Shown: piece after piece, positions 29,549-36,827 of the stretch | How the letters are laid out: each line of letters opens with the position of its first letter | How positions within the stretch are numbered: the first letter of the stretch is position 1 | Assembly (NCBI GenBank): GCA_017302045.1 | Contig: JAFLED010000004.1 | Location: 1 to 41,088, forward strand | DNA: 41,088 bases | From: Spirochaetota bacterium | Lineage (GTDB): Bacteria > Spirochaetota > Leptospiria > Turneriellales > Turneriellaceae | Reading direction: 5' to 3' | Notes under the pieces: generated by a model | The model's database searches: none | What the model saw: only the letters and a program-made list of their open reading frames with translations | What the model was told of the DNA's origin: nothing | Translations under genes and position numbers: made by a program

Positions 29549-30736
29549 TTATTTGGCTTCGCCGACGGCGTACCAGTCAACGCGCCGCGTTAGGTACATC
29601 GTCAGGGCGAGCGCCGCAAAGAGCGTCAGCGATCCCGAAAGCAGGGCAGCCTCTTCGAGTTGCAGAATGACATAGAGCAGTGCATAGAGCCCTGCGATGA
29701 TGAGCGTGAACTGCACCGCATGTGCCCGGCTCAGCAAAATACCGCCCGAATACCGCGAGAGCAGAATCGTATTCGCCGAACCGGCAATGAGGTAGGCCCA
29801 GGCAAAACCCAGGTACTCCGAAAGCGCGAGCAGCAACAGATAAAAGATGACGATGCCGAGACCGGCGAGAAAGTACTGCATCGGATGAATCTGCGCGCTG
29901 CTGACGAGTTCGAAGAGAAAGAGCGCCGCCAGCGTCAGGGCGATAAAGAGAATCGCGTATTTTACCGAACGCTCTGTCACGAGATAGATGTCGGCGGCCT
30001 GATAAAAAGAGACGCCGAAGACGCCCGGGGTGGCAACTTCGGTATGGCGGTCGACGGCGGCAAAGATTTCACTCCACTTGCGTGCCGCAACACCCGAGAC
30101 TTTCCACGTCGCCGAAAAACCGGACTTCTGAATGTCGTAGGTCAACGGCAGAAAGTCGCCGAAAAAGCCCGGGTCATTCCAGTCTGAGGTCAGGCGTAGT
30201 TCGGTTTCGGTGGCGACGGGTAACAGGCTGAAGCTTTGCAGACCTTCGGCGGCGACCTGCAGTTGCACGCGTGTTCCTGCAAACCCCGCGGGCACAGATG
30301 CCTTGTAGACAAAGATGCCGTTTTCGACAGTTTCTGAAAAAAGCAGCGGCGCATTCGCGAGCGAGGCTTTTTCGATTCTGAGTCGAGCACGCGATTTCAG
30401 CATCATCTGCCGTGCACCCATACGCCGCAACTCGCCTGTGAATTGCAATTTAGCGGCATAGAGCGGAAAGCGGTAGATACCCTTACGCCGCAGACTGACT
30501 TTGAGAACGCCATCGACGCGTAGCTGGCTCATTTCAATCGCAGTCTCGCCCGCAAAACCGACGGGGCCGGCGATCATCTGTGGGGCACCCCAGATGCGCG
30601 CCATTTCGCGCAAGACAGTTTCGCGGCGCTGTGCGCGTTCGCTGACGAGCGGCAACACGAGCGAGGCCAGCATTGTGAGTATCAGCGTGAGTAGAGAGAG
30701 CCAGAGTATCTGGTTACGGAGTTTGTTTTTCTTCAT
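29549..30736 (-). CDS. creD: CreD-family inner-membrane protein
   Basis: A 395-residue membrane protein. It has an N-terminal helix (NQILWLSLLTLILTMLASLVLPLVSERAQRR) and a large periplasmic beta-rich region of about 230 residues. A cluster of C-terminal helices follows (YAILFIALTLAALFLFELVS, IHPMQYFLAGLGIVIFYLLLLALSEYLGF). 'HPMQY.L.G....FYLLLLALSE..GF' is the CreD hallmark. The ATG at 30736 gives the standard N-terminus; the ATG at 30781 would place a regulatory box in the 5' end and is less likely. It is divergent from creBC, with a CreB consensus site between them. In enterobacteria CreD is the most strongly induced CreBC target and affects envelope and beta-lactam phenotypes. Confidence 0.92.
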   Translation of the reverse strand: MKKNKLRNQILWLSLLTLILTMLASLVLPLVSERAQRRETVLREMARIWGAPQMIAGPVGFAGETAIEMSQLRVDGVLKVSLRRKGIYRFPLYAAKLQFTGELRRMGARQMMLKSRARLRIEKASLANAPLLFSETVENGIFVYKASVPAGFAGTRVQLQVAAEGLQSFSLLPVATETELRLTSDWNDPGFFGDFLPLTYDIQKSGFSATWKVSGVAARKWSEIFAAVDRHTEVATPGVFGVSFYQAADIYLVTERSVKYAILFIALTLAALFLFELVSSAQIHPMQYFLAGLGIVIFYLLLLALSEYLGFAWAYLIAGSANTILLSRYSGGILLSRAHAVQFTLIIAGLYALLYVILQLEEAALLSGSLTLFAALALTMYLTRRVDWYAVGEAK

Positions 30737-30782
30737 GATGCTGAAACTTACACCGGGCAGCCTGTTTGTAGATGAAGGCATT

Positions 30783-30798
30783 GTGAATTTCAGGTGAA
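30783..30798 (-). promoter_or_regulatory. cre-tag: CreB binding site TTCAC-N6-TTCAC upstream of creD
   Basis: Read on the creD strand the site is TTCAC CTGAAA TTCAC, an exact match to the E. coli cre-tag consensus (two TTCAC direct repeats spaced by six bases). It lies 46 bp before the creD ATG and 68 bp before the creB ATG. A lone third half-site, TTCAC, is at 30827-30831 on the plus strand. Confidence 0.75.
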
Positions 30799-30866
30799 TT
30801 TTGCCGCCGCCGCGGCGAAAAACGACTTCACCTTGCTGTTGCGGTTATTTCTTTGCCGCGAACCGT

Positions 30867-31559
30867 ATGCAGCCACGCCGCATTTTGCTAGTCGAAGACG
30901 AAAGACCCATTGCAGAAAATATTGTCTATGCGCTCAAAGCGGAACATTTCGCCGTAAAATGGGTCTCGAAGGGCGGCGACGCGGTGCGCGCATTGCAAGA
31001 AGAGGGCGCGGACTTCATTATTCTCGACATCAATCTGCCCGATATGTCGGGTTTCGACGTCTGCCGCGAGATACGCAAACACAGCGATAAGCCGATTCTG
31101 TTTTTATCGGCGCGGCAAGACGAAATCGACCGTGTCGTCGGTCTCGAAATCGGCGGCGACGATTATCTGATGAAACCCTTCAGCCTGCGCGAGCTCGTCG
31201 CGCGTATCCGCGTCATTCTCAAGCGCAGTGAAAACAAATCTGCCGAAGCGCCGAAGTCTAAGTCTAAAACCCCCTTCGAAATCGACGAAAAGCGCAACCG
31301 CATTTCGTATTTCGGCGAGAAACTCGAACTTTCGCGCTATGAATACTTCATTCTCTGCACGCTGGTGGGCCGACCGGGCTGGGTGTTTAGCCGCGATCAG
31401 CTCATCGACCATTCGATGGGGCAGGTGAGCGCGCCCTTCGATCGTACGATCGACGCGCATATCAAGGGCATACGCGCGAAACTGCGCAAGATCAACCCCG
31501 ATATTGACGCGATTGAAACGCAGCGCGGGTTTGGTTATGCGCTGAAGGAAAACTGGTGA
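30867..31559 (+). CDS. creB: CreB response regulator (OmpR/PhoB family)
   Basis: A 230-residue regulator. The receiver domain starts RRILLVEDERPIAENI with D11/E12, phosphoacceptor D54 in LDINLPDMSG, and K103 in LMKPF. A Lys/Ser linker leads to an OmpR-type winged helix (LELSRYEYFILCTLVGRPGWVFSRDQLI and DAHIKGIRAKL, with GFGYAL at the end). The ATG at 30867 gives the usual start two residues before the first strand. The next gene, creC, overlaps its stop (GTGA). It binds the cre-tag upstream of creD by family knowledge. Confidence 0.93.
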   Translation: MQPRRILLVEDERPIAENIVYALKAEHFAVKWVSKGGDAVRALQEEGADFIILDINLPDMSGFDVCREIRKHSDKPILFLSARQDEIDRVVGLEIGGDDYLMKPFSLRELVARIRVILKRSENKSAEAPKSKSKTPFEIDEKRNRISYFGEKLELSRYEYFILCTLVGRPGWVFSRDQLIDHSMGQVSAPFDRTIDAHIKGIRAKLRKINPDIDAIETQRGFGYALKENW

Positions 31560-32875
31560 GTATTCGGCTGCGGCTTCTGGCGGCGCTGCTCGTCACTGCG
31601 GCCGTCGCATTCTATTTTCTCGGGCGCACGCTGATGGCTGACGTCAAGACGCGCTATTTTCAGGTGCTCGAAGATTCGTTGTCTGAAACAGCCTATCTTT
31701 TGGCTGCGGGCGCCGAACAAAACGTGCGCGATGGCCGTATCGACGTCGTACGCACGGCCCGCCTTGTCGATACAGTACTCGCACGCACGCTCGACGTCGA
31801 AATCTTCGGCGTGAAGAAAACGCGCATGCAGTTGCGCGTCTATATTACCGACGATAAGGGTAAGGTACTTTACGATTCCGCATATCTCGCAGCGGGTAAA
31901 GATTATTCGCGCTGGAACGACGTCTACCTCACGCTGCGCGGACGTTATGGCGCGCGATCGAGCCGCGACGATGTGCGTTATCCCGGCGTCAGTGTAAAAT
32001 ATATCTCGGCGCCGATACGCGCCGGTGGCAAGGTCGTCGGCGTGCTCACGACGGGAAAGCCCGCTGTCACGTTAGAGCAGGCTATCGAAGCAACGAAAGA
32101 AAAAATTCTCGCGACGATTGCGGTTGTCTTCGCGGGGTTTATCCTCATCGGTTTTGCGCTCAACTACTGGATCACGCGCCCGATACCGCGGCTCGAAGCC
32201 GAACTCGATGCGAAAAAATATATTGAAAATTTTGTACAGATGCTGACGCATGAATTTAAAACGCCCGTCGCGGGTATTCTCGGCGCGGCCGAAATTCTCG
32301 AACGCGAGCTGCCGGCCGAAGACCGCCGGCGTTTTCTGTCGAATATCGGGCGCGAAGCCGGTCGTATACAGCGGATCACCGAAAATCTGTTAACGGTCGC
32401 GCGGCTCGAGAATATGCATTCGCTCGGTGAAACCGAATGGGTGCATCTCGGAGAACTCGTGCGGCAGATAGCCGAAGACTCGACCGAGATGCTTGCGGCC
32501 AAGAATCTCAGACTTACGCTCGAAAGCGAAGAGCTTAGTGTGCAGGGCAATTATTTCTTTCTTTATCAGGCGGTGGTGAATGTTTTGCAAAACGCCATCG
32601 ACTTCTCCGCGTCAGGAGAGGAAATCCGCATCGCCGTCACGAAAAGCCGAACGGGGGTTGTGGTGTGCGTCGAAGATCATGGCGTCGGAATTCCCGATTA
32701 TGCGCGGGATAAAATTTTCACGAAATTTTATTCGCTCGAACGGCCCGATACAGGGCGCAAGGGTACAGGGCTGGGCCTGGCTTTTGTGGCGCAGGTGATG
32801 AAACTGCATGGCGGCAAGGTACGTCTCGAAAATCGTGTTACCGGCGGTGTGCGTGCCGTGCTCGAGTTTGGCTAA
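31556..32875 (+). CDS. creC: CreC sensor histidine kinase
   Basis: A 439-residue membrane kinase. TM1 (residues 3-23) and TM2 (185-205) flank a periplasmic sensor of about 160 residues with a Cache-like pattern (VYITDDKGKVLYDSAY and SVKYISAPIRAGGKVVGVLTTGKP). The H-box is QMLTHEFKTPVAGILGAAEIL with H232; the 'GAAEIL' ending is characteristic of CreC. The ATPase domain shows N (VVNVLQNAIDFS), G1 (VEDHGVGIP), F (FTKFYSLERP) and G2 (GTGLGLAFV) boxes. The start is GTG at 31556, overlapping the creB stop. It senses metabolic or envelope signals in enterobacteria. Confidence 0.93.
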   Translation: MSIRLRLLAALLVTAAVAFYFLGRTLMADVKTRYFQVLEDSLSETAYLLAAGAEQNVRDGRIDVVRTARLVDTVLARTLDVEIFGVKKTRMQLRVYITDDKGKVLYDSAYLAAGKDYSRWNDVYLTLRGRYGARSSRDDVRYPGVSVKYISAPIRAGGKVVGVLTTGKPAVTLEQAIEATKEKILATIAVVFAGFILIGFALNYWITRPIPRLEAELDAKKYIENFVQMLTHEFKTPVAGILGAAEILERELPAEDRRRFLSNIGREAGRIQRITENLLTVARLENMHSLGETEWVHLGELVRQIAEDSTEMLAAKNLRLTLESEELSVQGNYFFLYQAVVNVLQNAIDFSASGEEIRIAVTKSRTGVVVCVEDHGVGIPDYARDKIFTKFYSLERPDTGRKGTGLGLAFVAQVMKLHGGKVRLENRVTGGVRAVLEFG

Positions 32876-35588: not shown

Positions 35589-36827
35589 GTGGCAGCCTCC
35601 CGCGCAAGCGCGTCGTTTATCTTCATTACGATTCTTCTCGATGTTATCGGCTTCGGATTGATCATACCCGTGATGCCGAAAATGGTGTCGAAGTTTACAT
35701 CCAACGATATCGAGACCAACCAATGGTATATGATCATGACTGCCAGTTATGGCATCATGCAGTTCTTTTTCTCGCCGATTCTCGGTGCGCTCTCCGATAA
35801 GTTCGGTCGGCGCCCGGTGATTCTGATCTCGATTGTCGGCCTCGGACTCGATTTTATCTTGCAGGGCATTGCATGGTCGATTCCCGTACTTTTTGCCGCG
35901 CGGCTTTTAGGCGGCATCACCGGCGCGAGTTTTTCGGTGGGTAGCGCCTACATCGCCGACGTCACCACGAATGAAGATCGCGCAAAAGGTTTCGGCATGA
36001 TCGGTATGGCATTCGGTATCGGCTTTATTCTGGGGCCGATGCTCGGCGGTTTTCTCGGCGATTATAGAGCGGAATACCCCTTTTTCGCCGCGGCGGGTTT
36101 CTCGCTCTTGAACGCCGTCTACGGTTTCTTTGTGCTGCCCGAATCGCTGCCGCATAACCTGCGCACGCCGTTCTCGCTCAAAAAGGCGAACGCTTTCTCG
36201 GCGCTCAAGGGTCTTGTCGAACTCAAGGGCCTCGGCATGTTTATTCTCGCGATTGCGATGACGAACCTTGCGCAGTTCATGATGCATTCTGTCTGGGTGC
36301 GTTATACCGAAACACGCTTCTTCTGGACGCCGAAAGATAACGGTATTGCGCTCTTCTGTGTGGGTATTTCAGCTGCGATCGTACAGGGTGGCCTGCTCGG
36401 CGTACTCATCAAAAAATTCGGCGAAGTCAGTCTTGCCAAGATCGGGCTCTTTTTCTGCGCGCTGCAGTTTTTACTGATGGGGTTGGCCCCCGCGGGCTTT
36501 TACATGTATGTAATTCTCGCGATCTGCATTCTTGCCAATGCGGCCGGGCCCTCGCTGCAGGCGCATGTTTCGCGCTGCGTACCGCCCGAGAAGCAGGGCA
36601 TTGCGATGGGGTCGCTGACCTCGATTGCAAGTCTTTGCCAGGTAGCCGCGCCTTTTATCGCCCTGACGATTCTCTCGAAATTCACGCACGCACCAGGCGC
36701 GATCAACACGCTGCAGGCAGGCATGCCGTTCTTTGCGAGTGCAGTTTTACAATTTCTTGCGTTTGCGATCGCCGTCTGGTATTTCGCACATGAATCCGAT
36801 GCGATGAAAGAACTGCGCCGGGCTTAA
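35589..36827 (+). CDS. MFS transporter (DHA1/TetA-like)
   Basis: A 412-residue twelve-helix transporter. TM1 contains [21 protein letters not shown]. Motif A in the 2-3 loop is [12 protein letters not shown], and motif C in TM5 is [15 protein letters not shown]; both are typical of drug/H+ antiporters. TM4 reads [23 protein letters not shown], as in TetA and related carriers. The start is GTG at 35589 with no strong Shine-Dalgarno, 44 bp after the GH18-like gene. The substrate is unknown; TetA-like proteins of this type export diverse compounds. It converges on the TPR gene. Confidence 0.87.

What the first reader, a model, noticed from the sequence alone, without database searches (positions are those of the whole stretch)
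30737..30866. Exact enterobacterial cre-tag in front of creD
TTCAC-N6-TTCAC on the creD strand matches the E. coli CreB consensus with exact spacing. The genome lineage appears far from enterobacteria, yet creD, creB and creC are all present, arranged divergently around the site. This implies that DNA recognition by CreB is conserved, or that the module moved as a unit, and that CreBC regulates creD here.
Basis: partly seen in the sequence, partly recalled or inferred. Interest (0 to 1): 0.65.

Follow-up and report, generated by a model that had tools for sequence, protein, structure and literature searches.

The report
Ancient CreB switch: creD plus exosortase
The DNA site in front of creD is very probably a real and deeply conserved binding site for the CreB regulator, built here from three repeats rather than two, and the only other such site in this genome sits in front of a protein-sorting (exosortase) operon, so this little-understood switch probably controls a cell-surface protein system in many bacterial phyla.

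Summary
TTCAC-N6-TTCAC lies at 30798-30783 (minus strand), upstream of creD's true start (30736), between divergent creD and creBC. CreB, CreC and CreD all pass NCBIfam equivalog cut-offs. The real site is larger: three half-sites with an 11-bp period (TTCAC-N6-TTCAC-N6-TTCAT). That form occurs twice in 3.78 Mb: at creD, and 28 bp before an exosortase K-like gene followed by its VIT-domain MSEP-CTERM gene. Three-repeat TTCAY arrays occur in 17 of 28 CreC-positive genomes of the phylum and 0 of 13 CreC-negative ones. Across about 100 CreBC loci from at least seven phyla, arrays cluster upstream of creD (26 seen, 0.1 expected) or upstream of VIT/VWA genes that travel with XrtK, XrtQ or a sortase. 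The CreB recognition helix is conserved. A CreC tree shows no recent transfer from enterobacteria. CreBC with cre-tag and creD is a known system; the third half-site, the depth of conservation and the recurrent VIT/(exo)sortase target look new. Binding and regulation are inferred, not shown.

The parts
29549..30736 (-). creD: inner membrane protein CreD, 395 aa
   Evidence: PF06123 318 bits; NCBIfam NF008712 322 bits against a 275 cut-off
30783..30798 (-). cre-tag as described: TTCAC-CTGAAA-TTCAC
   Evidence: only exact match in the window
30772..30798 (-). full operator: three half-sites with an 11-bp period, TTCAC-CTGAAA-TTCAC-AATGCC-TTCAT
   Evidence: one of only two such sites in the genome; the same form at creD in G001 and G002
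30737..30866 (.). creD-creB intergenic region with divergent starts
30867..31559 (+). creB: OmpR/PhoB-type response regulator
   Evidence: NCBIfam NF008296 CreB 298 bits against a 273 cut-off; BaeR (206) and PhoB (179) fall below theirs
31556..32875 (+). creC: sensor histidine kinase, overlaps creB by 4 bases; HAMP stretch missing
   Evidence: NCBIfam NF008312 480 bits against a 356 cut-off; about 33 columns missing against relatives; no HAMP match, while G001 CreC has a weak one

Best explanation
30772-30798 is the CreB operator of creD. It is read as three tandem TTCAY half-sites, 11 bp apart (one DNA turn), by phosphorylated CreB molecules lying head to tail on one face of the DNA, as known for other PhoB/OmpR-type regulators; this activates creD. 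In the same genome a near-identical triple site 28 bp before the xrtK-MSEP-CTERM pair (contig C241) puts an exosortase and its VIT-domain substrate under the same switch. This pairing of CreBC with creD and/or a VIT-domain protein plus its sorting enzyme recurs in many phyla, so the ancestral job of CreBC is probably an envelope response that makes CreD and a sorted VIT/VWA surface protein. Shown: sequences, family membership, conservation, co-occurrence. Inferred: binding, activation, physiological role.
For: creD, creB and creC equivalogs. Triple site at creD in G000, G001 and G002, whose CreD proteins are only 52-54% identical to that of the window. Only two triple sites in the genome, the second upstream of XrtK/MSEP-CTERM. 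Triple TTCAY arrays in 17/28 CreC-positive and 0/13 CreC-negative genomes. Four-repeat arrays at creD and at xrtK in G127 and G222, where creBC lies on another contig. xrtK arrays in 4 of 7 CreC-positive and 0 of 6 CreC-negative genomes. About 100 CreBC loci: 26 arrays within 260 bp upstream of creD, 0.10 expected from the rest of the loci. Arrays upstream of nine VIT/VWA genes near creBC, with XrtK, XrtQ or a sortase behind or beside them. In Ereboglobus a blind scan found a four-repeat array just before a VIT gene away from creBC. Recognition helix conserved. Literature: TTCACnnnnnnTTCAC is the cre/blr-tag, and induction by BlrA depends on it (PMC3660660).
Against: No binding or expression data. 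xrtK lacks the array in congeners G001 and G002, which have CreBC, so the link is not universal even within the genus. Pseudomonas creD promoters have no exact TTCAY pair. Some TTCAT-type arrays in the phylum precede pstS, so the repeat is also a Pho-box form in some species. No sigma-70-like promoter was recognised at 30600-31000. Counts ignore relatedness, and several genomes are draft MAGs. The motif was refined on the same loci that were then counted; the blind genome-wide scans (own genome, Ereboglobus) are the cleaner test.
Confidence: 0.82

Rival explanations
1. The arrays are Pho boxes read by PhoB, the relative of CreB, and not CreB sites.
For: TTCAT-rich 11-bp arrays precede pstS in G060, G071 and G135; CreB and PhoB belong to one regulator family.
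Against: In the own genome the only two triple arrays are at creD and xrtK, none at pstS. Arrays track CreC presence (17/28 against 0/13). They lie in the creC-creD gap in many phyla. CreB-type arrays nearly always carry TTCAC, while the G135 pstS array is all TTCAT.
Confidence: 0.06
2. Chance match: a two-repeat motif of ten fixed bases is expected several times per genome.
For: The bare motif has 7 matches, about 6.9 expected.
Against: It sits in the 130-bp creD-creB gap, has a third in-phase repeat, and is kept in two congeners and across phyla.
Confidence: 0.02
3. creBCD with its operator was transferred recently as one block from enterobacteria.
For: The exact E. coli consensus is present, and CreBC is patchy: 32 of 296 genomes of the phylum at E <= 1e-60.
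Against: Window CreC pairs with its congener and lies outside the proteobacterial creD-linked clade; CreB, CreC and CreD are all far from E. coli in sequence. Gene order differs (divergent against collinear). Transfer between distant phyla in the deep past is not excluded: the deep fork that holds the window has modest support (85) and the spirochaete rows do not form one clade.
Confidence: 0.03
4. The creD site is a CreB operator, but the xrtK-MSEP-CTERM site belongs to another regulator or is not used.
For: xrtK lacks the site in G001 and G002.
Against: The repeat core and phasing match the creD sites of G001 and G002 almost base for base. Independent arrays occur at xrtK in G113, G127 and G222, all CreC-positive, and at VIT genes in other phyla.
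Confidence: 0.15

Closest known systems
E. coli CreBC-creD and the cre-tag; Aeromonas BlrAB and the cre/blr-tag (PMC3660660)
   Same: CreB, CreC and CreD equivalogs; exact TTCAC-N6-TTCAC upstream of creD on the creD strand; recognition helix nearly identical.
   Different: creD is divergent from creBC; a third in-phase half-site; far-off phylum; second site at xrtK-MSEP-CTERM; no creA at the locus.
Exosortase K / MSEP-CTERM (TIGR04287 / TIGR04286)
   Same: xrtK-like gene followed by an MSEP-CTERM protein with a VIT domain (312 bits against a 150 cut-off).
   Different: XrtK scores just under its strict cut-off (48.8 of 55). I found no regulator described for this pair in the open papers searched; here it has a CreB-type operator.
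Proteobacterial dedicated sortase system (TIGR03784 sortase, TIGR03788 VIT/VWA target, TIGR03785/03787 two-component pair)
   Same: A two-component system next to a VIT/VWA protein and its sorting enzyme.
   Different: The kinase and regulator here are CreC and CreB, not the marine_sort pair (window CreB 153 bits against a 336 cut-off); the sorting enzyme is often an exosortase.
PhoB and the Pho box
   Same: Same regulator family; direct repeats with an 11-bp period.
   Different: Half-site TTCAC/T; PhoB models are well below cut-off for the window regulator.

Membership tests
CreBC two-component system with CreD | CreB response regulator equivalog | tested here: met
   NF008296 298.1 bits, cut-off 273
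CreBC two-component system with CreD | CreC sensor kinase equivalog | tested here: met
   NF008312 480.3 bits, cut-off 356
CreBC two-component system with CreD | CreD inner membrane protein equivalog next to creBC | tested here: met
   NF008712 322.3 bits, cut-off 275
CreBC two-component system with CreD | cre-tag TTCAC-N6-TTCAC upstream of creD | tested here: met
   30783-30798; conserved in congeners
CreBC two-component system with CreD | CreB binds the tag and activates creD | not testable with these tools
   needs EMSA or a reporter; the recognition helix is conserved
CreBC two-component system with CreD | collinear creABCD order as in E. coli | tested here: not met
   creD divergent, no creA at the locus; order also varies among relatives, so it is not treated as defining
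PhoB / Pho box | PhoB equivalog score, and arrays at pst genes | tested here: not met
   TIGR02154 179 bits against a 296 cut-off; no TTCAY triple other than at creD and xrtK in the own genome
XrtK / MSEP-CTERM system (second target) | MSEP-CTERM protein with VIT domain | tested here: met
   TIGR04286 312 bits against 150; VIT only 24.9 bits against a 26.5 cut-off in this truncated copy, 28.9 in the congener G001
XrtK / MSEP-CTERM system (second target) | XrtK exosortase | tested here: inconclusive
   TIGR04287 48.8 bits against 55; the superfamily model TIGR04178 (36.6 against 23) is passed

The most novel reading that the evidence does not exclude
CreBC is an ancient, multi-phylum envelope regulator whose conserved regulon is creD together with a VIT/VWA surface protein and its dedicated exosortase (XrtK, XrtQ) or sortase, reached through TTCAY arrays of two to four or more half-sites. 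This would supply a regulator for orphan exosortase systems and a plausible original purpose for CreBC.
Probability: 0.65. Interest if true: 0.75.

Novelty: new variant of a known kind. Interest (0 to 1): 0.66.

Why it matters
CreBC has been studied mainly in enterobacteria, Aeromonas, Pseudomonas and Stenotrophomonas, where its real purpose is unclear. Finding the same operator, in a longer form, in spirochaete relatives, Verrucomicrobiota, Thermodesulfobacteriota, Bdellovibrionota, Acidobacteriota and Hydrogenedentota, and repeatedly at VIT-protein/exosortase genes, turns the open question of what CreBC is for into one that can be tested. It also gives exosortases K and Q, whose biology is little known, a candidate regulator and a place in an envelope response.

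Tried and rejected
The bare two-repeat motif as a regulon finder was rejected: 7 matches, about 7 expected. The five genome matches other than creD and the C241 xrtK site lack the third repeat and were not followed up. A profile of MSEP-CTERM for a collection scan failed because it is too divergent; CreC was used instead. The small membrane protein behind the G127, G222 and G172 arrays could not be placed in a known family: no Pfam match. An out-of-sample test on XrtQ in the class of Variovorax gave only two genomes and was uninformative. Recent transfer from enterobacteria was rejected by the tree. The -10 element could not be placed.

Full report
WHAT IS THERE. The minus strand reads AATTCACCTGAAATTCACAATGCCTTCATCTACAAAC... 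from 30800, and the creD ATG follows at 30736. The exact cre-tag TTCAC-N6-TTCAC is at 30798-30783; it is the only one in the window, against 0.08 expected. A third half-site, TTCAT, follows with the same 11-bp phase, ending at 30772. The gap 30737-30866 separates divergent creD (29549-30736, minus) and creBC (30867-32875, plus). NCBIfam equivalog models identify all three genes above cut-off.

IS IT MORE THAN CHANCE. The two-repeat motif alone is not: 7 matches in 3.78 Mb, about 6.9 expected. The three-repeat form is: two sites in the genome, none for the reversed control, none in 12 Mb of simulated sequence. The three-repeat form stands in front of creD in both congeners that have CreBC (G001, G002), with the same divergent layout, although their CreD proteins are only 52-54% identical to that of the window.

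THE SECOND SITE. The other triple site, TTCACATAGAATTCACACAGCCTTCAT at G000:C241:1445-1471, ends 28 bp before the ATG of an exosortase gene (closest to XrtK, 48.8 bits against a cut-off of 55). That gene overlaps the start of an MSEP-CTERM gene (312 bits against 150) whose protein carries a weakly scoring VIT domain. Congeners G001, G002 and G004 carry xrtK-MSEP-CTERM without the site; G004 has no CreC or CreD.

TEST IN THE PHYLUM. CreC, above cut-off or as a clear fragment, is in 28 sampled genomes. Triple TTCAY arrays occur in 17 of these 28 and in none of 13 CreC-negative genomes that carry MSEP-CTERM or CreD-like genes. Five of the array matches (G030:C22, G032:C129, G042:C470, G167:C6, G135:C32) look incidental or, for G135:C32, precede pstS; in 13 of the 17 genomes at least one array stands before creD, a CreD-like gene or xrtK. 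In G127 and G222 creD and creBC are on separate contigs, yet creD has a four-repeat array, and so does xrtK. G113 has creBC, no detected creD, a four-repeat array before xrtK, and a two-repeat site between creC and a class D beta-lactamase gene, a parallel to the Aeromonas BlrAB beta-lactamases (PMC3660660). For xrtK-MSEP-CTERM the array is in 4 of 7 CreC-positive and 0 of 6 CreC-negative genomes.

TEST ACROSS PHYLA. A CreC profile scan gave 80 named loci. In these and the spirochaete-phylum loci, pairs or longer runs of TTCAY lie within 260 bp upstream of creD 26 times; the density elsewhere predicts 0.10 (relatedness is ignored, so the nominal P is not meaningful). Nine more stand upstream of VIT/VWA genes, in Desulfobacterales, Moraxellaceae, Comamonadaceae, another pseudomonadote, Akkermansiaceae and Holophagae. 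Pfam confirms VIT and VWA in all eight that were scanned; NCBIfam shows XrtK, XrtQ or XrtQ-like, or a sortase-like enzyme next to the five that were scanned, and tblastn shows such an enzyme at the others. Of the remaining 15 arrays, several stand before CreD-like genes (directly in L195 and L196, one gene away in L228) or before the beta-lactamase. In Ereboglobus, which has creBC without creD beside it, a blind genome scan found a four-repeat array just before a VIT gene that is not at the creBC locus; with the own-genome xrtK site this is the cleanest evidence, because the site was found first and the gene identified afterwards. Pseudomonas loci have no exact TTCAY pair before creD.

THE REGULATOR. 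CreB of the window has DRTIDAHIKGIRAKLR where E. coli has DRTVDTHIKTLRAKLR, and the motif is held in nearly all CreB loci read. The DNA-contact residues were not mapped on a solved complex. The CreC tree puts the window with its congener on a deep branch near other non-proteobacterial CreC; the proteobacterial creD-linked CreC form a separate supported clade. Deep forks are weakly supported, so old transfers cannot be excluded, but a recent move from enterobacteria is not supported.

MECHANISM. PhoB/OmpR-type regulators bind direct repeats head to tail, one subunit per 10-11 bp (established knowledge of the family, not tested here). Three or four TTCAY half-sites fit a row of CreB subunits placed to recruit RNA polymerase at creD. 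Binding, phosphorylation dependence and activation are inferred.

KNOWN AND NEW. Known: CreBC, CreD, the cre/blr-tag and its need for induction. New as far as I could check in open papers (most subscription papers are not held): the third and fourth half-sites as a standard feature, the depth of conservation, and the recurrent VIT/(exo)sortase target. A two-component pair beside a VIT target and sortase is already recorded as the dedicated sortase system in NCBIfam, but with a different kinase and regulator family.

Noticed in passing
window 31556-32875: CreC of this genome lacks about 33 residues between the second membrane segment and HisKA (the HAMP stretch) that relatives, including congener G001, have; signalling may be altered, or it may be an assembly fault.
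   Followed up: partly
L143:7336-8253 (G113:C396): Directly behind creBC, a two-repeat cre-type site precedes a class D beta-lactamase gene (NF012161 262.7 bits against 250), a spirochaete-phylum parallel to Aeromonas BlrAB-controlled beta-lactamases.
   Followed up: partly
L166, L167 (G222:C236, G127:C200) and L155 (G172:C98): Four-repeat arrays precede a small membrane protein gene of unknown family (no Pfam match), next to a divergent gene that looks like a PTS transporter part in G127 and G222; probably a further CreB target.
   Followed up: partly
G060, G071, G088 (loci L148-L150, L159-L161, L164, L165, L168): TTCAY four-repeat arrays precede pstS-like and PHP-domain-like genes in one AT-rich genus, so the same repeat form can be a Pho box.
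   Followed up: partly
L328 (G300:C7:11728-11787), Akkermansiaceae: Six TTCAY repeats in a row with an 11-bp period, between a divergent ferritin-like gene and a small ORF; target unknown.
   Followed up: no
window 35589-36827: MFS transporter close to the Tet(A)/Tet(B)/Tet(C) efflux model (277.9 bits) but well below its cut-off (475), so an efflux relative rather than a called resistance gene.
   Followed up: no
L068 against L111, L112, L113: The xrtK-MSEP-CTERM pair lies in a different gene neighbourhood in this genome than in congeners G001, G002 and G004, which fits separate acquisition or relocation together with its operator.
   Followed up: no
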